Positions 43,955 to 53,422 of a stretch of DNA of 64,000 nucleotides are shown here, one piece after another (the first letter of the stretch is position 1; the number at the start of each line of letters is the position of its first letter). The notes beneath the pieces were generated by a model. The model was not told the DNA's origin, searched no databases, and worked only from the letters and a program-made list of their open reading frames with translations. The DNA is taken from NCBI GenBank assembly GCA_019695235.1, contig JAIBAI010000002.1, forward strand, positions 1 through 64,000, given 5' to 3'. The position numbers were made by a program, and so were the translations under genes. This stretch comes from Bacteroidia bacterium (GTDB lineage: Bacteria > Bacteroidota > Bacteroidia > M30B66).

Positions 43955-44028
43955 AGGGGCAAATTTTAAATTAATTGTTTTGCAAAATTGCATCGTTTTT
44001 TTTGCCAAATAAATTTTCACCGATACAA

Positions 44029-44059
44029 TTGCCTGAAACGCTTTAAATTCTTATATTTG
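44029..44059 (+). promoter_or_regulatory. Probable promoter of the small T9SS protein gene
   Basis: TTG at 44029-44031, a 20-bp spacer and TATATTTG at 44052-44059 match the Bacteroidota consensus. The start would be near 44067, leaving a ~60-nt leader before the ATG at 44129. Confidence 0.6.
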
Positions 44060-44128
44060 TTTGTTAAATCAAAGTTAAAATCTACTTTTGTCGGTTCAAT
44101 TGCGTTTCTATTTCTACGTTCATCATTT

Positions 44129-44665
44129 ATGAATAAATTTTCATTCCGCACTATTTTACTGCTTGTAGCAGTGTTTGGTTTTGGTGTTTTGCACGCTCAG
44201 ACATTACAGTTAAAACCCAGTGTTATTGCATCACAGGGGGGTAATTTTGTAAACAGCAACTTTGAGATTTCCTATACCATAGGCGAGTTGGCGGCTGTTT
44301 CAACTATCACTAATACAGGTGCAGCCTTAACCTTTACACAAGGTTTTCATCAGCCGGATAAGTTCTCTGTTTATGTCGGTGTAAATGAAATTGACAATAT
44401 GGTTTCGGCCAATCTATATCCAAATCCGGCAAGCGACCGTGTGTATCTTGCTATTGCTGCGGGGTTTGAAAAAGGCATTGTTGCTGATTTGTTTGATGCT
44501 TCAGGCCGTAAAATTTTTGCCAGTCAGAAACTTTCGCATGTTGCCGGAGCGCAGCAATATGAGTTTTCAATTGGTGGACTTTCTGCGGGTACTTATTTAA
44601 TCAGATTAAGTACAATTGACGGAACAAGTCAAAAAACATTCCGCTTTAATAAGGCATATTTCTGA
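44129..44665 (+). CDS. Small T9SS-secreted protein
   Basis: 178 aa from the ATG at 44129, which begins a signal peptide (MNKFSFRTILLLVAVFGFGVLHAQ). A short ~75-residue body (IASQGGNFVNSNFEISYTIGEL...FTQGFHQPD) is typical of many Bacteroidota proteins that carry little besides a sorting domain. Residues ~95-178 are a type A T9SS domain (NLYPNPASDRVYL, DLFDASGRKIFA, GLSAGTYLIRL). Function is unknown. It lies just upstream of the collagen-like cluster and has its own promoter. Confidence 0.88.
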   Translation: MNKFSFRTILLLVAVFGFGVLHAQTLQLKPSVIASQGGNFVNSNFEISYTIGELAAVSTITNTGAALTFTQGFHQPDKFSVYVGVNEIDNMVSANLYPNPASDRVYLAIAAGFEKGIVADLFDASGRKIFASQKLSHVAGAQQYEFSIGGLSAGTYLIRLSTIDGTSQKTFRFNKAYF

Positions 44666-44740
44666 TAAAGACACAAGCCTTGGAAGAGGGTTGTTTGCCA
44701 AGGGAGACAGCCATTTTACAATCGCCTAAAATAAACGCCC

Positions 44741-45931
44741 ATGCTGAAAAATGTACGGTTGATTTTGCTGGCATGCCTCATGCAAGGGATTGTATATGCA
44801 CAAAACTTAGTTCCGCAGCTTATAAATTATCAGGCAATTGCCAGAACTGCAAGCGGAGCGGTATTTGTAAACAAACAATTAGGAATTCGTATTAGTGTGT
44901 TGGAGGGAAGTTCTTCCGGGGCTGTTCAATACAGTGAACGTCATGTTGTTACGACCAATTCTTTTGGTTTGTTTACCTTAAAAATAGGTTCAGGCACTCC
45001 GCTCAGCAATACTTTTGCATCCATTACCTGGAGTACGGCCAATCAGTATTTGAAAGTTGAATTGGACCCGGAAGGTGGTACAAATTACACTGATTTGGGA
45101 ACCAATGAGTTACTATCGGTTCCTTATGCACTTTATGCGCAAAACGGCGGTTCTGGTGGTACGCAGGGGCCGCCAGGGCCTGAAGGGCCTCAGGGACCGC
45201 AAGGCGAGCAGGGTCCGGCAGGAACTCCGGCTCCGGAGTATGAAGCGGGGCCGGGCATCGGGATTTCCGGAAATGTCATATCGAATACCGGAGACAGGGA
45301 TTCAACAAACGATATAGTCATTGGTTCAGTTGCCGGTGGTGACCTGAGTGGGTTCTATCCTGACCCATCAGTGGTTAAGATTCAGGGAATTCCTGTTTCT
45401 CCTGATGCTCCAACCGAGGGGCAGGTTCTTCAATTTAATGCCACAAATAATAGGTATGAGCCAGTTACACCTGCGAGCGGAGGCTCAGGGGGAGCAACAG
45501 GTTCTCAGGTTTACTCAAGTTCTTCGATTGCTTTAACAAGTAATTTCCAATTGATTCCGGGTATGCAAGCTACCATCAATGTACCTGAAGGTGGGATGGT
45601 TTTGGTTAACACCCAGGGTGGGATTTACTCTGATTATACAGGAACAGCAGGGGCAGCAGTTGAATTCAGATTGCTTTTTGACGGGCAATTACCGGCAGTT
45701 AATCTGGGATCTGCCTATGAGATGCATACTTTATATCATACAGCCGGGGTACGTGAAAATTATCTGAATTGGTCGTTTTCGCATTTATACACCAATGTAA
45801 GCGGAGGTTCGCATACCATTGAGCTACAAAGTAAGCGCCAGATTCTGGCCGGAAACCCAGCAATAAGTGTTGGAGGCGGGCCAACAGACATCAATCAGGG
45901 CTTAATCAATGTATTGATTTACGCCCCTTAA
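44741..45931 (+). CDS. Collagen-like secreted protein 1 (short collagen stretch)
   Basis: 396 aa. Signal peptide (MLKNVRLILLACLMQGIVYAQ), then an N-terminal module of ~115 residues ([46 protein letters not shown]) shared with the next two genes. A short collagen stretch of 8 Gly-X-Y triplets ([19 protein letters not shown]) follows. The middle part (GISGNVISNTGD..., GDLSGFYPDPSVVKIQGIPVS) resembles phage tail-fibre linkers. The C-terminal ~140 residues form a beta-rich head that might trimerise. There is no T9SS sorting domain. It is the first of three tandem paralogues. Confidence 0.85.
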   Translation: MLKNVRLILLACLMQGIVYAQNLVPQLINYQAIARTASGAVFVNKQLGIRISVLEGSSSGAVQYSERHVVTTNSFGLFTLKIGSGTPLSNTFASITWSTANQYLKVELDPEGGTNYTDLGTNELLSVPYALYAQNGGSGGTQGPPGPEGPQGPQGEQGPAGTPAPEYEAGPGIGISGNVISNTGDRDSTNDIVIGSVAGGDLSGFYPDPSVVKIQGIPVSPDAPTEGQVLQFNATNNRYEPVTPASGGSGGATGSQVYSSSSIALTSNFQLIPGMQATINVPEGGMVLVNTQGGIYSDYTGTAGAAVEFRLLFDGQLPAVNLGSAYEMHTLYHTAGVRENYLNWSFSHLYTNVSGGSHTIELQSKRQILAGNPAISVGGGPTDINQGLINVLIYAP

Positions 45932-45989
45932 TTAGCATCAAACAATTTCATACAGTAAATTCATAAACACCATACAATTCGATACCAAT

Positions 45990-48497
45990 ATGAGACAATT
46001 GCTCAGAGTATTCATTCTCACATTATTTGCGGTTCAGTTTTTACAGGCGCAGACGCCTGTACCTGGCGGCATTAATTATCAGGCCATTGCGCGAAATGCC
46101 AATGGCGGGGTTTACGTTAACAAGGCAGTTTCAGTGCGCATCACTGTATTGCAAGACAACAACCCCGGAACGGTTCAGTACACAGAAACCCATGCTGTTA
46201 CTACCAATGGTTTCGGTTTGTTTAATTTAAAGATTGGTGGTGGAACACCCGAGAGCGGCACCTTTGATGATATCACATGGACAACCGCCAATCAATACAT
46301 TAAAGTAGAGGTAGATATTGATGGAGGCACTAATTATGTAGACATGGGTACCAGCGAATTGCTTTCAGTTCCTTATGCATTATATGCAGAAACTTCTGGC
46401 AATTCAGGTTCTGTAGGTCCGGAAGGCCCTGCTGGTCCTGCCGGTCCTGCTGGTGCAAAAGGCGACAAGGGAGATAAAGGAGATGCCGGTGCTACTGGCC
46501 CTGCCGGAGCCACCGGTGCACAAGGTCCTGCTGGTCCTGCCGGTGCAAAAGGCGACAAGGGAGATAAAGGAGATGCAGGTGCTACTGGCCCTGCCGGAGC
46601 AACAGGAGCACAAGGTCCTGCTGGTCCTGCCGGCCCGGAAGGTCCTCAAGGCCCTCCAGGAAGTGGTAGTGGTTCTGGTAATACGGTATTAAACGGTACT
46701 GGAAACCCTGGTGCCGGAACAGGAAATTTGGGTGATTTTTATATCAACACAACAACTGATGAAATTTTCGGACCTAAGACTGGTTCAGGATGGGGTACTG
46801 GAACTTCATTGGTAGGTCCGCAAGGCACAAGTGGTAGTGCAGGTGCTGTTGGCCCGCAAGGTCCTGCCGGTCCTGCCGGTGCAAAAGGCGACAAGGGAGA
46901 TGCCGGTGCTACAGGCCCTGCCGGAGCCACCGGTGCACAAGGTCCTGCTGGTCCTGCTGGTCCTGCTGGTGCTACCGGAGCAACTGGCCCAATTGGTTTG
47001 ACTGGTCCTGCTGGTGCTACCGGAGCAACAGGTGCTCAAGGCCCTGCCGGCCCTGCTGGTGCTACTGGTGCAACTGGTGCTCAAGGTCCTGCTGGTGCTC
47101 CTGGTGCTCCTGGAGCAACTGGCGCTCAAGGTCCTGCCGGCCCTGCTGGTGCAACCGGTGCAACCGGAGCCCAAGGCCCTGCTGGTGCAAAAGGCGATAA
47201 GGGAGATAAAGGTGATCAGGGTGATCCGGGACCTGCGGGCGGTGGAACACTTGATCAGGCTTATGATTTTGGTGGCCCAGGTTTGGGACGTACGATAACT
47301 GCAGATGCAAGTCCGGTAGAAATAATTGTATCAGGAGCCAATGCCACATCAGACAGGGGTATTCGCATAACAACAGCCGGCACCAATGCAATTGGTTTGG
47401 ATATTCCACATACAGGAAGTGGGGTAGGGGTGCGTGTAAACAATTCAAATGCGAGCAATACCTATGCTGCTGTTCAGGCACAAACAAATAGTACCACCGC
47501 TAATAATTCAGCCATATTCGGGCAGACAACTGGTGCAGCATCAGGGGTTGCCGGTGAAGTATCTTCTTCTGCTACTGCCTTTGCAGCTGTTCATGGAAGT
47601 AACCTGCGTACTACAGGTGGTGCGGGAGTAAACGGGATTGGATTTCAGGGAGTAACCGGGCAAACAATTCGTGTATCTGGTACAGGGGTGTTTGGGCAGC
47701 ATAACACTCCGGCTACCGGTGCAGATCCATTTGCAACGCCTACTGGTATTTATAATGCCGGCGTACTTGGTGTTGGATACTGTGGTACGGTTGGTCAGAC
47801 ACAATTTGCAGGTGGTTCGGGAATTTTCGGATTAAACATAGCCACAGCCACAGCAACTGATGACGCTGCCGGTGTGATTGGCGATGGTGATTTTGTGGGA
47901 GTGGTTGGATATTCAAATGCCGCTTATTATGGAGTTGGTTCTTTAACGAACATTCTTGCTTTAGGCAATTTAGAGGCCTATGGCACCAAAACATTTATCA
48001 TTGACCATCCGGCTGACCCTGCCAATAAATTTTTAAGGCATTTTGCTGTTGAATCGAATGAGGTACTGAACATGTATAGAGGTGTTGTACAGTTAGATGG
48101 TAAAGGTGAAGCAACGATAAGCTTACCTACCTATTTTGAAGCAGTTAATAAGAATTTTGCCTATCAGTTAACGGCTGTTGGCGGGTCAATGCCAGGAGTA
48201 TACGTAAAATCGGAGATTGCATCCGGACAATTTACAATTGCTGGCGGTATTGCCAATGGCAAAGTATCATGGCAGGTTACAGCAGAACGTAACGACCTGT
48301 ATCTGCAGAAAAATCCACAAGAAAGAGAAGTTGAAAGAGAAAAACCAGCCTTTAAGAAAGGAACTTACATGAAGCCTGAACTTTACGGGGAGCCTATTGA
48401 GAAATCCTACCTGAATGCTCGCCGCTTTAGCAAAGTAGCGCCATTGGAAACTCCTAAAGGCAAGGGACAACAAAATACATTCCCTGCAAGCAAGTAA
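45990..48497 (+). CDS. Collagen-like secreted protein 2 (long interrupted collagen domain)
   Basis: 835 aa. Signal peptide ([21 protein letters not shown]), the shared ~115-residue N-terminal module, a first collagen block of 27 Gly-X-Y triplets, a ~50-residue insert ([20 protein letters not shown]...), and a second block of 47 triplets. The collagen part is rich in GPA, GAT, GAQ and GDK triplets, the last giving charge pairs. After it comes [15 protein letters not shown], identical to that in the third paralogue, then Gly/Ala-rich repeats and a C-terminal domain ([30 protein letters not shown]) of a type found after bacterial collagen or fibre stalks. It is likely a trimeric surface fibre; export route unknown. 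Confidence 0.88.
46455..46634 (+). repeat. 90-bp in-frame tandem duplication in the collagen domain
   Basis: Two nearly identical 90-bp copies start at 46455 and 46545 and encode the same 30-residue unit, [19 protein letters not shown] followed by [11 protein letters not shown]. Only a few synonymous changes separate them, so the duplication or conversion is recent and the collagen length could vary between strains. Confidence 0.85.
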
Positions 48498-48517
48498 TTC
48501 AAACACAAAATAAATAT

Positions 48518-50320
48518 ATGTTTTCACGAAGAAAAAGTTTGATTCTGGGTCTTGGACTGGCATTGTCAGGTCTTCTTAGTGCTCAGACACCGGTACCCTC
48601 CGGCATTAATTACCAGGCGATTGCGCGTAACAGCAATGGCGGGGTTTATGTAAATCAGAGTATTGCGGTACGGATATCTGTATTGCAGGGTTCTTCATCG
48701 GGTGCTATACAATACTCAGAGACCCATGCAGTAACTACCAATGGCTTTGGTCTTTTCTCACTAAAGATTGGTGGTGGTACGCCTGTGCAAGGTACGTTTG
48801 ATGACATCACCTGGAGCACAGCCAATCAATATGTAAAAGTGGAGGTTGACATTGCCGGAGGAACCAATTATGTTGAGATTGGTAATAGTGAGCTTTTATC
48901 AGTTCCTTATGCCTTATATGCCGAAAGTGCAGGAAATGGTGGTACCGGAACCGGACCACAGGGGCCTCCCGGCCCTGCTGGCCCTGCGGGAGAAAAGGGT
49001 GAAAAAGGAGATGCCGGTGCAACAGGTCCACAAGGCCCTCCCGGCCCTGCCGGGGTAGCTGGTGCTCAAGGTCCTGCCGGTGCAACCGGAGCTCAAGGTC
49101 CTGCCGGGGTAGCTGGTGCACAAGGTCCTGCTGGTCCTGCTGGTGCAACTGGTGCTCAGGGTCCTGCCGGTCCACAAGGCCCTGCCGGTCCTGCGGGCGG
49201 TGGAACACTTGATCAGGCTTATGATTTTGGCGGCCCGGGTTTGGGTCGTACGATAACTGCAGATGCAAGTCCGGTAGAAATTACAGTTGCTGGCACGGCA
49301 GCTGCTTCACGCACCGGTTTATTGGTAAATACGGCTGGTACAAGTGCAATTGGGGTAGATGTGGCCAGCACCGGAACGGGTGTGGCAATACGTGCAAAGA
49401 GCAATCTTGCCGCGAACACATTTGCTGCAATTCAGGCAGAAACCAACAGTTCTACGGCAAGTAATGCAGCCATTCTGGGCAACTCAACCGGAGCAGCGTA
49501 CGGGGTAAGCGGACAGATTATGTCGAGCGGAACATCGTATGCCGGTGTTTACGGAAATAACTTAAGAGTTGGAGCAGGTGTAGGTGTTGGTGGAATGGGC
49601 TCTATTGGTGTTGGCGGTGAGTCAAGCAATGCAAATGGATTCGGTGTTTTTGGTATCGGAAACCAATTGCCCTATAACAATAATTCAGTGAACACTGCAG
49701 GTGCTGGTGGTGCCTTTAACGGTTGGAACTGGGGCTTATTTGCTAAACCATTAAATTACTCTTCCGGTGTAAACCAAGGCTCAATTTTTACATTTGATGG
49801 CAATCCTAGCCCGGTACCGGCAAGTCAGGTAGTGGTGAATCTGTGGGATAACACAGATACTCATTATAAGATTTGGGGTGGTGGAGCTGTTTCAACGATT
49901 GTAAGGGATAACAATGGTGGCTGGGCTACGATGTACGCACCCGAAGCGCCGGAAGTTCTATTGGAGGACTATGGCCAGGGTCAGTTGATAAATGGTAAGG
50001 CACACATTTCTCTTGACCCGATTCTTGTAAAAAACATTGCAGTGAACGACAAGCATCCGCTGCGTGTATTTGTGCAACTTGAAGGTGCATGCAATGGTGT
50101 GTATATCACTAATAAAACTGGCAATAGTTTTGAAGTGGTTGAGTTGAATGGTGGCAAATCAAATGTGGCCTTCCAATGGCATGTAGTGGGCAACCGCGCT
50201 GATCAGGACGAGGGTGGAAGAGTAGCACGTTATCAGGATGTACGATTCAATCGAGCAAAAATGTTAGACAAGTTGAAAAATATTGAGGGTGGTATTGAAA
50301 CACCAACTCCTGCGAAATAA
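48518..50320 (+). CDS. Collagen-like secreted protein 3
   Basis: 600 aa. Signal peptide ([23 protein letters not shown]), the shared N-terminal module, one collagen block of 27 Gly-X-Y triplets, then [19 protein letters not shown], shared with paralogue 2, and a Gly/Ala-rich region. The C-terminal ~140 residues differ from paralogue 2: [39 protein letters not shown] and [17 protein letters not shown] form another beta-rich head domain. The gene begins 20 bp after paralogue 2 and ends at a strong bidirectional terminator, so the three genes form one unit. Confidence 0.88.
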
Positions 50321-50340
50321 CTTGTAGTAGTTTTCAAAAG

Positions 50341-50374
50341 AAAAGCCCTGAAATGTATTTCAGGGCTTTTTTTA
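50341..50374. terminator. Bidirectional terminator between collagen-like 3 and TPR genes
   Basis: A near-perfect 14-bp stem (AAAAGCCCTGAAAT / ATTTCAGGGCTTTT, 50341-50370) with a tiny loop, flanked by A and T runs on both sides, sits between two convergent genes and overlaps the stop region of the minus-strand TPR gene. Confidence 0.9.
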
Positions 50375-51217
50375 TTGAAGTTGCTTTAGCCCGGCATGCG
50401 CTGTTGAGTCAAGCGGGTTGAGGTTTAGTACAGTATTGAAATCTCTTCGGGCGGAGATGAAATCTTTGCGTAAAATGTGCCACTTTGCCCGTACGAGATA
50501 GAAGCCAGCATTGTGTGAATCAAGTTGAATAGCATACGAAAGATTTTTCATGCCTTGAAGTGTATCTTTGAGAATGTTTAGTTGCGTTTGGGCAAGTTTA
50601 AAATAAGCCTCCGCATAACGAGGGTTCAATGTAATTGCCTTTTCGAAGTCTTTAACTGCCTGTTGAGGTTGCAGGAAGTTTTTTAATGAATCAACAAGGC
50701 TTGAAGAGTAAAAAGCACCCCGCAGAAACCAGGCATCCGGGTTGGTACTGTCGGCCTGAATTGCCTGATGGAGGCACTGGAGGCTTTCATCAGGTTTTTT
50801 GGTATAGAATAGCAGCAAAGCACGCTCTAATAAGAATTCAGAAACGATATGTCCGCTTTGTTTGGTTGATGGGAGTGTGAGATGTCGTAGGGCGGCGAGG
50901 GTATCACCCTGGTAAGCAAGCAGGCGGGCGAATTCGAGTTTTGCTCCGAGGCTTGTTGGGTTTAGTTGTAAAGCATGCAAGAGGTCTTTGGCTGCCTTTT
51001 CGTGTTTTTCTACACGGTTATAGCAGTGGGCACGTAAGACCAATACGCTATCAGAAGGAGCGTGATTTTCAAGATAGAGGTTGATTTCGAGGATACAGCC
51101 TAAGAAATCACGGGCAGCGTATTCGTTTTTTGCAAGTTGCCAATGGTCTTTTGACTGGGTGTTGCAAGCAAAAATGAAGAGCAAAGCTAATGCAAGAGGA
51201 GCAAGATGTCTTGTCAT
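50372..51217 (-). CDS. TPR-repeat lipoprotein
   Basis: 281 aa. A lipoprotein signal (LALALLFIFACN, lipobox FAC) places it on a membrane facing the periplasm. Six to seven tetratricopeptide repeats follow (for example AAKDLLHALQLNPTSLGAKL, AVKDFEKAITLNPRYAEAYF, ARRDFNTVLNLNPLDSTAHA), a protein-binding scaffold. Its start overlaps the end of the carboxylase-like membrane gene by 4 nt, so they are translationally coupled and likely function together. The partner or substrate is unknown. Confidence 0.88.
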   Translation of the reverse strand: MTRHLAPLALALLFIFACNTQSKDHWQLAKNEYAARDFLGCILEINLYLENHAPSDSVLVLRAHCYNRVEKHEKAAKDLLHALQLNPTSLGAKLEFARLLAYQGDTLAALRHLTLPSTKQSGHIVSEFLLERALLLFYTKKPDESLQCLHQAIQADSTNPDAWFLRGAFYSSSLVDSLKNFLQPQQAVKDFEKAITLNPRYAEAYFKLAQTQLNILKDTLQGMKNLSYAIQLDSHNAGFYLVRAKWHILRKDFISARRDFNTVLNLNPLDSTAHAGLKQLQ

Positions 51218-52584
51218 TTGCTGGCTACTCCTGATTTATAAGCTTCCAGTTGCGTGAAGAGGTCTTTTGATTTTTCAACCACCACAAATGGTTCCCGTCC
51301 GTTCATAGAAAGGCTTAAATCTGCTCTTATTTCAACCTGACCTGGCAATATTGCTTTCAGGTAATTGGCAAATTGTAGAATCATTCTTGGGTCCTGAGCC
51401 ATGAATTTTTGCTGGTGTTGCGTAAGATAGGTGTCAAGATGAATCTTTGATTCACGCCCGCTAACAGTATCAATCTTCCAGAAAGTAACGCTTCCTGATT
51501 TTTCATAAAGTTCCATGTTCCAGGAGAAATGGAATATGGTGTCGGCCCATTTAAGGGCACCCCATTTCATATATGCCACCACGGGCCAGCTTAATTGAAA
51601 GCCCAGGAACACTGAAATCAGCACTATCATCAGGCGTTTATTGCGGTATTCTAACATATAGCCCCCACCGGGTTTAAATACATCTCCTTTAAATTGAAAT
51701 ACATCGTATAAAAAGTAAGAGATACGTGAAATAAATTCATGAATTCCGGCAGGAGGAAGGAATATCAAACAGGAAACACAAAACAAAACAGGGAAGAAGC
51801 CAACCGGAAAAAGTACCAATGAAATCACTTGCAAGCACAGAAATAATAGAAAGGTGCCTGTTGCGGTTTTTTTATCGAAGAGGAAATGAGGGAAAATAAA
51901 ATCAGAAAGAATTAACAGCCATGAAAGTAAAATGGCGAGCCATTTAAAGCTGCCGGTTAGGTCAATATACAGCCCCCAATTCCGAAATGCCTCCATGAGC
52001 CAAAGTGAGAGTGGACGGCCTTCAAAGAGCCAGTCGTAGTTTAATTTTCCCATTCCGGCAAAAAAGAAGACCAAAACCACCTGTATTTTCATTGCAAGCA
52101 TAAACCAGGTTGGAATAAAGTCAACGCGTATTGATGGTTTCCGGATAAGGTCAAGTGAAAAAAGGCGGTGTGCTGGGGATACCAAAAGCATTAACGCCAT
52201 GATAATTACAAAATAATAGTAGCTGAGGTAATTTGATTTATCTATCAATGTAATGTATCCGAAAGCCAGAATAAAGACCAGGGTACTTATTTTAAAGAAC
52301 AATCCGGCTCCAAGCAGAAGGGCACTAAGGGCAATCAGCATGAATACGAGATACAGGCTTGTTGTTCCGGGTGGTTCAATCCAAGCGAATCCTTTATAGT
52401 GGAAAACGAAATTACCTGAAGTAAATAATTCTGAAAGGGTGCCATTAAGCAGCATATTCAATGCCCATCCAGCCATCACCGCGCCAAACATAACCCTCAC
52501 AAGCACCAAAGGATATAATGATGCGGGTTTAAACAAGGCGATGAGTTGCCGGTTAAGAATGGATTTGATATCAGTAAAATGCAT
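51214..52584 (-). CDS. Vitamin K-dependent gamma-carboxylase-like (HTTM) membrane protein
   Basis: 456 aa with about eight membrane segments in the first ~320 residues (HTTM domain), then a ~130-residue soluble domain. FFFAGMGKLNYDWLFEG contains Lys180, which lines up with the catalytic Lys of animal carboxylase (AG..KLDADW). The soluble part also matches: HFSWNMELYEKSGSVTF, YLTQHQQKFMAQDPRMILQFANYL and LSLSMNGREP. This is therefore a full-length homologue rather than an HTTM-only protein. In animals the enzyme carboxylates Glu to Gla; bacterial members have unknown substrates. A His conserved after DK..NNH in animals seems changed (DKSNYLSYYY), so the chemistry may differ. It is coupled to the TPR lipoprotein. 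Confidence 0.85.
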   Translation of the reverse strand: MHFTDIKSILNRQLIALFKPASLYPLVLVRVMFGAVMAGWALNMLLNGTLSELFTSGNFVFHYKGFAWIEPPGTTSLYLVFMLIALSALLLGAGLFFKISTLVFILAFGYITLIDKSNYLSYYYFVIIMALMLLVSPAHRLFSLDLIRKPSIRVDFIPTWFMLAMKIQVVLVFFFAGMGKLNYDWLFEGRPLSLWLMEAFRNWGLYIDLTGSFKWLAILLSWLLILSDFIFPHFLFDKKTATGTFLLFLCLQVISLVLFPVGFFPVLFCVSCLIFLPPAGIHEFISRISYFLYDVFQFKGDVFKPGGGYMLEYRNKRLMIVLISVFLGFQLSWPVVAYMKWGALKWADTIFHFSWNMELYEKSGSVTFWKIDTVSGRESKIHLDTYLTQHQQKFMAQDPRMILQFANYLKAILPGQVEIRADLSLSMNGREPFVVVEKSKDLFTQLEAYKSGVASK

Positions 52585-52651
52585 TGAATATATCCAGGCT
52601 GAATTTAGGAAAATTTCTGCATGGTTCAGAAAATCTTTACTTTTGAAACCG

Positions 52652-53422
52652 GTGCAATTTCTAAAAAAACTCCTTTTTGTCCCTTATTGGGTCTGGCTTT
52701 TTCTAGTGTTTCTTGCCTTTTTGGTGAGTTCAACCTTGATTTCTTCATTGCTTTTGCTGGTTTTAAGCAAGAAAGCACAAAAGCCATTAATAGGTTTGTA
52801 TAAGTTTTGGGCGGCTGTATTTTTTACTGCTGCATTTGTGCGTATCAGGATGGAGAACAGAAAGATTGTAAAGGAGAACAATCCTGCCATTATTGTGGCC
52901 AATCATGGCTCAAATCTCGATATGTTTTTAGGGGCTTATGCTTTGCCATTGAATACCAAGCCTTTGGCAAAGGTGCAGTTAAAAAAAATCCCCTTGCTTG
53001 GTTTCTTGTTTTCAACAGTTTGTGTGCTGATTGACCGATCGAGCAGGGAGAGTCGTGAAAAAGGCTCTCGCAGGCTTAAGCAGGAAATGAAAAATGGCAA
53101 TTCAATTTTCATTTATCCGGAAGGTACACGCAACAAAGGAAATGAACCGATAAATGCATTTTTCGACGGGGCATTCAGGTTTGCCATCGAAGGTCAGGTG
53201 CCAATCGTGGCAATGTGTTCTATTGGGGCAAGGCACATAACGCCTTCTGATGGCTATGCTGTGAGACCTGGTACAATCCGGATAGTTTTTTTAGGCCCGT
53301 ACATCACAGAAGGACTGACCCCACATGATGTTCAGGGTTTGAAAGAGCGTGTGCGCAATGATATGTATGCGTTGATTGCCAGAGAAGACCCTATGTTCAG
53401 TGCTTCAAAGCTTCCCGCCTAA
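52652..53422 (+). CDS. plsC: 1-acyl-sn-glycerol-3-phosphate acyltransferase
   Basis: 256 aa from a GTG at 52652. There is no in-frame ATG between the divergent gene's start (52584) and the conserved region; TTG at 52643 is an alternative, and an ATG at 52559 would overlap the divergent gene. It adds the second acyl chain in phospholipid synthesis. An N-terminal membrane segment (VPYWVWLFLVFLAFLVSS) is followed by the HX4D motif NHGSNLD, the FIYPEGTRNKG motif, and GAFRFAIEGQVPIVAM. The 3' end overlaps the convergent gene by 18 bp. Confidence 0.9.
   Translation: MQFLKKLLFVPYWVWLFLVFLAFLVSSTLISSLLLLVLSKKAQKPLIGLYKFWAAVFFTAAFVRIRMENRKIVKENNPAIIVANHGSNLDMFLGAYALPLNTKPLAKVQLKKIPLLGFLFSTVCVLIDRSSRESREKGSRRLKQEMKNGNSIFIYPEGTRNKGNEPINAFFDGAFRFAIEGQVPIVAMCSIGARHITPSDGYAVRPGTIRIVFLGPYITEGLTPHDVQGLKERVRNDMYALIAREDPMFSASKLPA

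What the first reader, a model, noticed from the sequence alone, without database searches (positions are those of the whole stretch)
50372..52584. Full-length vitamin K carboxylase-like protein coupled to a TPR lipoprotein, beside the collagen cluster
The membrane protein has both the HTTM part with the catalytic-type Lys (Lys180 in AGMGKLNYDW) and the soluble domain with HFSW, QDPRMILQFAN and NGREP. Most bacterial HTTM proteins are not characterised. The 4-nt overlap with a TPR lipoprotein suggests a substrate-recruiting partner in the periplasm. Convergent collagen-like proteins contain Glu residues near the stalk and are speculative substrates; a prokaryotic protein-carboxylating (Gla-like) or related modification system would be new.
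Basis: partly seen in the sequence, partly recalled or inferred. Interest (0 to 1): 0.66.

Follow-up and report, generated by a model that had tools for sequence, protein, structure and literature searches.

The report
Rewired vitamin-K-carboxylase relative with TPR partner
This bacterial membrane protein has the fold and one catalytic lysine of the human vitamin K-dependent carboxylase, but its family has replaced the histidine and asparagine that grip glutamate and always pairs it with a TPR lipoprotein, so it is probably a repurposed relative and not a bacterial Gla-making enzyme.

Summary
Window 51214-52584(-) encodes a 456-aa HTTM plus VKGC-lumenal protein. Its only PDB fold matches are human GGCX. 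It overlaps by 4 nt a TPR lipoprotein gene (50372-51217), and the base Lys (K180 = GGCX K218) is present.

The Gla-carboxylase interpretation is weakened. GGCX N159-H160, which hold the substrate Glu, read S121-Y122 here. All nine orthologues from the window's bacterial family read Ser-Tyr. All 130 other Bacteroidota homologues examined, plus human GGCX, read Asn-His. This 'LSY' clade also lost G259, F286, H287 and M402, but kept K218, W223 and F299. It is monophyletic (support 100, long stem) and under strong purifying selection (dN/dS about 0.05), so it is a remodelled functional protein and not a decaying copy.

Genomic context switches with the active site. All 9 LSY genes have the TPR lipoprotein directly downstream. 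All 18 canonical Asn-His genes examined lie between imelysin and a TonB receptor. The collagen genes are convergent, separated by a bidirectional terminator-like hairpin, and adjacent in only 5 of 9 genomes, so they are not supported as substrates.

Best reading: a TPR-coupled, neofunctionalised VKGC paralogue acting on something other than a GGCX-style Glu, or a scaffold. New variant of a known kind; chemistry and substrate unproven.

The parts
51214..52584 (-). HTTM + VKGC-lumenal-domain membrane protein, 456 aa (LSY-clade VKGC paralogue)
51751..52533 (-). HTTM domain, residues 18-278
   Evidence: Pfam PF05090 E 5.6e-49; the only HTTM protein in this genome
51247..51639 (-). periplasmic/lumenal domain, residues 316-446
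   Evidence: Pfam PF22777 E 4.1e-22
52045..52047 (-). Lys180 codon = GGCX K218 (hydroquinone-deprotonating base)
   Evidence: aligned; K in 9/9 LSY and 111/111 other homologues
52219..52224 (-). Ser121-Tyr122 codons at the position of GGCX N159-H160 (Glu-binding pair)
   Evidence: SY in 9/9 clade members, NH in 111/111 class homologues and 19/19 further phylum homologues
50372..51217 (-). TPR-repeat lipoprotein, 281 aa, lipobox Cys18, overlaps the HTTM gene by 4 nt (ATGA)
   Evidence: orthologue directly downstream of the HTTM gene in 9/9 LSY loci
50338..50373 (.). bidirectional terminator-like hairpin between the TPR gene and the convergent collagen-like gene
   Evidence: -21.0 and -17.9 kcal/mol on the two strands, z -6.4 and -5.7 against shuffles

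Best explanation
It is a two-gene unit: a neofunctionalised paralogue of the vitamin K-dependent carboxylase-like HTTM enzymes, plus a periplasmic TPR lipoprotein. Shown: GGCX fold, retained base Lys, clade-wide replacement of the Glu-binding Asn-His by Ser-Tyr and remodelling of the quinone/acceptor pocket, purifying selection, constant pairing with the TPR lipoprotein, and a genomic context different from the canonical imelysin/TonB-receptor operon. Inferred: the membrane protein still binds an apolar cofactor or lipid (most likely menaquinol) beside Lys180 and performs a Lys-initiated reaction, or a derived one, on an acceptor that is not a GGCX-type Glu side chain; the TPR lipoprotein holds or recruits that periplasmic acceptor. 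The collagens next door are not shown to be part of it.
For: K218 is invariant in all 120 bacterial rows while N159-H160 is S-Y in 9/9 LSY and N-H in 111/111 others, and N-H in 19/19 further phylum hits. In human GGCX, N159, H160 and Y395 coordinate the substrate Glu and H160A compromises Glu carboxylation (PMC12589487). Of 50 columns conserved outside the clade, 12 are lost in all LSY members; the lost positions include 159, 160, 211, 259, 286, 287, 296, 394, 400 and 402, while 218, 223, 263 and 299 are kept. Clade monophyletic, SH-aLRT 100, stem 1.47 changes per column. dN/dS 0.047-0.048, versus about 0.08 for canonical paralogues. TPR lipoprotein downstream in 9/9 LSY loci; imelysin upstream and TonB receptor downstream in 18/18 Asn-His loci. 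Confident models: HTTM pLDDT 89.5 with only GGCX structures matched, TPR 91.6. LSY found in 9 of 10 genomes of the family and nowhere else among 395 class and 396 phylum genomes sampled.
Against: No substrate, product or cofactor is shown. The quinone ring pocket and tail tunnel are also altered (F286 and G259 lost in 9/9), so even menaquinol binding is uncertain. Pocket enrichment among lost columns is only modest on the published pocket list (Fisher p 0.046). A TPR/HTTM physical complex is inferred from gene order only. K218 conservation could be partly structural.
Confidence: 0.55

Rival explanations
1. Pseudoenzyme or scaffold: the protein has lost catalysis and uses the HTTM/lumenal fold as a membrane platform for the TPR lipoprotein, for example in surface-protein assembly.
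For: Loss of the Glu site and of quinone-pocket positions F286 and G259, and of H287, in 9/9 members; long stem branch; TPR partner always present.
Against: K218 and W223 are invariant at 40-50% identity; K180 is one of 13 invariant columns among 42 diverse homologues; retained F299, D263 and V210 suggest a preserved site.
Confidence: 0.25
2. A genuine vitamin K (menaquinol)-dependent Glu carboxylase in which Ser-Tyr replaces Asn-His, with the TPR lipoprotein as substrate recruiter.
For: GGCX fold, base Lys, a menaquinone-pathway signature in the genome, periplasmic partner gene.
Against: N159-H160, F286, G259 and M402 lost in all members; Y395 is Phe; no VKOR; no Glu-rich Gla-like region in the stalks of the neighbours.
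Confidence: 0.12
3. The pair acts specifically on the neighbouring collagen-like/T9SS surface proteins, whatever the chemistry.
For: Collagen-like cluster c8 next to the pair in 5 of 9 genomes, and the T9SS-tail protein c11 near it in several.
Against: Convergent orientation with a bidirectional hairpin; collagen genes absent from the neighbourhood in 4 of 9 LSY loci while the TPR gene is never absent. Short-range synteny within one family may be simple inheritance.
Confidence: 0.08

Closest known systems
Human gamma-glutamyl carboxylase GGCX (PDB 9bvk, 9l6q, 9mqb and others)
   Same: Same fold (Foldseek TMq about 0.78, E down to 5e-17); HTTM plus first lumenal domain; base Lys218, W223 and F299 conserved.
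   Different: No PBD-2/Arch propeptide-binding part. N158-N159-H160 is Leu-Ser-Tyr, Y395 is Phe, F286 and G259 are replaced. Paired with a TPR lipoprotein.
Canonical Bacteroidota HTTM/VKGC proteins (YLNHYY type) in DUF4856-imelysin-HTTM-TonB receptor operons
   Same: About 30-38% identity, same two-part layout, same length, same base Lys motif.
   Different: They keep N159-H160, F286 and G259 and lie in a different operon (18/18); none has the TPR lipoprotein neighbour.
NNH-type HTTM/VKGC paralogues in the same bacterial family (L045, L046, L048, L049)
   Same: Same layout and base Lys; co-resident in some of the same genomes.
   Different: Keep Asn-Asn-His as in human GGCX; other neighbours (DUF1761, fatty-acid desaturase, epimerase).

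Membership tests
Pfam HTTM superfamily (PF05090) | HTTM profile match above gathering score | tested here: met
   167.5 bits against cut-off 27.7
Vitamin K-dependent gamma-carboxylase-like (VKGC) family, by fold and domains | HTTM followed by VKGC lumenal domain, GGCX fold | tested here: met
   PF22777 79.2 bits; the only significant PDB fold matches are GGCX entries
Vitamin K-dependent gamma-carboxylase (enzyme function) | Base Lys218 | tested here: met
   K180; 9/9 clade, 111/111 others
Vitamin K-dependent gamma-carboxylase (enzyme function) | Glu-binding N159-H160 | tested here: not met
   S121-Y122; SY in 9/9 clade members, NH in 130/130 other homologues and human
Vitamin K-dependent gamma-carboxylase (enzyme function) | Y395 of the Glu pocket | tested here: not met
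   Phe in 9/9; variable outside the clade too (Y 65, H 18, F 15 of 111), so weak on its own
Vitamin K-dependent gamma-carboxylase (enzyme function) | Quinone pocket F286, F294, F299 and tail tunnel G259 | tested here: inconclusive
   F299 and (in the window protein) F294 kept; F286 and G259 lost in 9/9
Vitamin K-dependent gamma-carboxylase (enzyme function) | Propeptide-binding PBD-2 / Arch domain | tested here: not met
   Protein ends at 456 aa; the phmmer match stops at GGCX residue 476 and Foldseek TM-score normalised by target is about 0.55. Canonical bacterial homologues are equally short.
Vitamin K-dependent gamma-carboxylase (enzyme function) | Menaquinone available in the cell | tested here: met
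   Two PF02621 (MqnA/MqnD) hits above cut-off; menB not above cut-off. Other pathway steps not tested.
Vitamin K-dependent gamma-carboxylase (enzyme function) | VKOR for epoxide recycling | tested here: not met
   No PF07884 match in the genome
Vitamin K-dependent gamma-carboxylase (enzyme function) | Formation of Gla on a protein | not testable with these tools
   Needs biochemistry or mass spectrometry

The most novel reading that the evidence does not exclude
A family-restricted membrane enzyme that keeps the GGCX base Lys and a lipophilic-cofactor site but has exchanged the Glu-binding His/Asn for Tyr/Ser, and uses a dedicated TPR lipoprotein to present a different periplasmic acceptor: a new protein- or lipid-modifying reaction derived from vitamin K carboxylation.
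Probability: 0.35. Interest if true: 0.72.

Novelty: new variant of a known kind. Interest (0 to 1): 0.47.

Why it matters
What bacterial relatives of the human vitamin K carboxylase do is an open question. This clade is a natural experiment: evolution kept the base Lys but swapped the Glu-gripping pair and the partner genes, and in several genomes it sits beside canonical paralogues that keep both. Comparing the two versions could separate cofactor chemistry from acceptor choice. It also warns that the Lys motif alone does not predict Gla formation.

Tried and rejected
Collagen-like neighbours as co-transcribed substrates: rejected because of the convergent orientation, the bidirectional hairpin and patchy adjacency. 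Decaying or pseudogene copy: rejected, open frames and dN/dS about 0.05. Defence-system component: no meaningful PADLOC match. Alignment artefact for S-Y: rejected, the motif YLSYYY aligns without gaps to YLNHYY. Gla-like Glu clusters in DUF4856, imelysin and TPR proteins: none found; one collagen has 8 Glu in 40 residues near its C-terminus, not pursued. Literature on HTTM with imelysin/DUF4856: none in the held library. The consensus terminator scan missed the 50338-50373 hairpin that direct folding shows.

Full report
OBSERVATION. Both genes are real. The minus strand of the window carries a 456-aa protein (51214-52584) and, overlapping its stop by 4 nt (AAATGACA), a 281-aa TPR lipoprotein (50372-51217). 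The first has Pfam HTTM (residues 18-278, E 5.6e-49) and VKGC_lumenal_dom (316-446, E 4.1e-22). A sequence search of the PDB gives human vitamin K-dependent gamma-carboxylase, GGCX, at E about 1e-18 over residues 3-430. An AlphaFold2 model on an alignment of 42 homologues has mean pLDDT 89.5. Foldseek against the PDB matches GGCX entries only (16 entries, TMq mostly 0.75-0.80; the next hit has E 0.8). So homology to GGCX is beyond chance. The protein lacks the propeptide-clamping PBD-2/Arch part of GGCX, as do the canonical bacterial homologues.

ACTIVE SITE. In GGCX, K218 deprotonates vitamin K hydroquinone; N159, H160 and Y395 coordinate the substrate Glu; H160A compromises Glu carboxylation; F286, F294, F299, H160, V210, M401 and W223 line the naphthoquinone; G259 lines the isoprenyl tunnel and G259W impairs activity (PMC12589487). 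The window protein keeps K218 (K180) but has S121-Y122 in place of N159-H160. I collected relatives from 100 close genomes, 395 genomes of the class and 396 of the phylum. In an alignment with human GGCX, 9 of 9 members of the window's own clade have Ser-Tyr. 111 of 111 other class homologues have Asn-His, including canonical paralogues in the same genomes. The 19 best further phylum hits all have Asn-His too. K218 is present in all 120 bacterial rows.

HOW DEEP THE CHANGE GOES. Of 50 columns highly conserved outside the clade, 12 are lost in every LSY member: GGCX positions 159, 160, 211, 259, 286, 287, 296, 380, 394, 400, 402 and 442. K218, W223, D263, Y162 and F299 are kept. On the published pocket list, loss is enriched in pocket columns (5 of 10 versus 7 of 40, Fisher p 0.046), a modest figure. 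The clade is one side of a single branch (SH-aLRT 100) with a stem of 1.47 changes per column; the tree was built without the three motif columns. dN/dS in two species pairs is 0.047-0.048, against about 0.08 for the canonical copies of the same genomes. The second LSY pair is near synonymous saturation (dS 2.6), so its ratio is rough. This is a remodelled protein under constraint, not a decaying one.

PARTNER AND CONTEXT. A TPR lipoprotein homologue (28-31% identity, lipobox Cys in all) is directly downstream of the LSY gene in 9 of 9 loci. No comparable hit was found in the sampled genomes outside the family; the two best outside it are at E about 3e-11. The TPR model is confident (pLDDT 91.6) and all-helical. 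Canonical Asn-His genes sit in another operon: imelysin directly upstream and a TonB-dependent receptor directly downstream in 18 of 18 loci examined, with a DUF4856 protein in 17 of 18. So active-site type and partner genes switch together. The LSY protein is the only HTTM protein above cut-off in the window's genome (100% complete) and in G002 (100% complete). Across the family it is found in 9 of 10 genomes; the exception is 73% complete.

COLLAGEN CLUSTER. The collagen-like genes are convergent with the pair. Between them lies a hairpin with z-scores of -6.4 and -5.7 on the two strands, consistent with a bidirectional terminator. The collagen cluster is next to the pair in 5 of 9 loci; the TPR gene is never missing. 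The stalk regions show no Glu clustering like a Gla domain; one collagen has 8 Glu in 40 residues near its C-terminus. The substrate proposal therefore has little support.

QUINONE SUPPLY. The genome has two PF02621 (MqnA/MqnD-type) genes, no menB above cut-off and no VKOR. Menaquinone by the futalosine route is likely; a VKOR-based epoxide cycle is not evident.

INTERPRETATION. Shown: fold, base Lys, clade-wide loss of the Glu-binding pair, pocket remodelling, purifying selection, fixed TPR partner, different operon. Inferred: the protein is a neofunctionalised VKGC paralogue acting on a non-Glu acceptor, with the TPR lipoprotein as periplasmic adaptor (0.55). Rivals: scaffold without catalysis (0.25); true carboxylase with Ser-Tyr (0.12); modifier of the collagens (0.08). 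By fold and domains it belongs to the VKGC-like family. It should not be filed as a vitamin K-dependent carboxylase, because a defining catalytic feature was tested and not met.

LIMITS. Homologues come from Bacteroidota only, plus human GGCX. The quinone-binding question is open because F286 and G259 changed too. The complex with the TPR protein is inferred from gene order.

Noticed in passing
L060-L072 and L033-L037 (canonical homologues elsewhere): Canonical Bacteroidota GGCX homologues (YLNHYY) sit in a tight DUF4856 - imelysin - HTTM/VKGC - TonB receptor operon: imelysin upstream and TonB receptor downstream in 18 of 18 loci. This suggests a metal-uptake role and makes imelysin/DUF4856 lipoproteins candidate substrates; no paper in the held library mentions it.
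   Followed up: partly
L045, L046, L048, L049: A third HTTM/VKGC paralogue type in the same family keeps Asn-Asn-His as in human GGCX; its neighbours include DUF1761, a fatty-acid desaturase and an NAD-dependent epimerase.
   Followed up: partly
window 44003-50320 (+): A run of a T9SS-tail protein and collagen-like proteins of one homology cluster; the N-terminal part of the collagen-like proteins weakly resembles the NCBIfam mosaic adhesive trimer domain Bdello_MAT_N (below cut-off).
   Followed up: no
window 52439-53422 (+): A 1-acylglycerol-3-phosphate acyltransferase-like gene lies divergent to the HTTM gene here, where the other eight LSY loci have an outer-membrane beta-barrel protein. 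Its listed GTG start overlaps the HTTM gene, so the true start is probably further in.
   Followed up: partly
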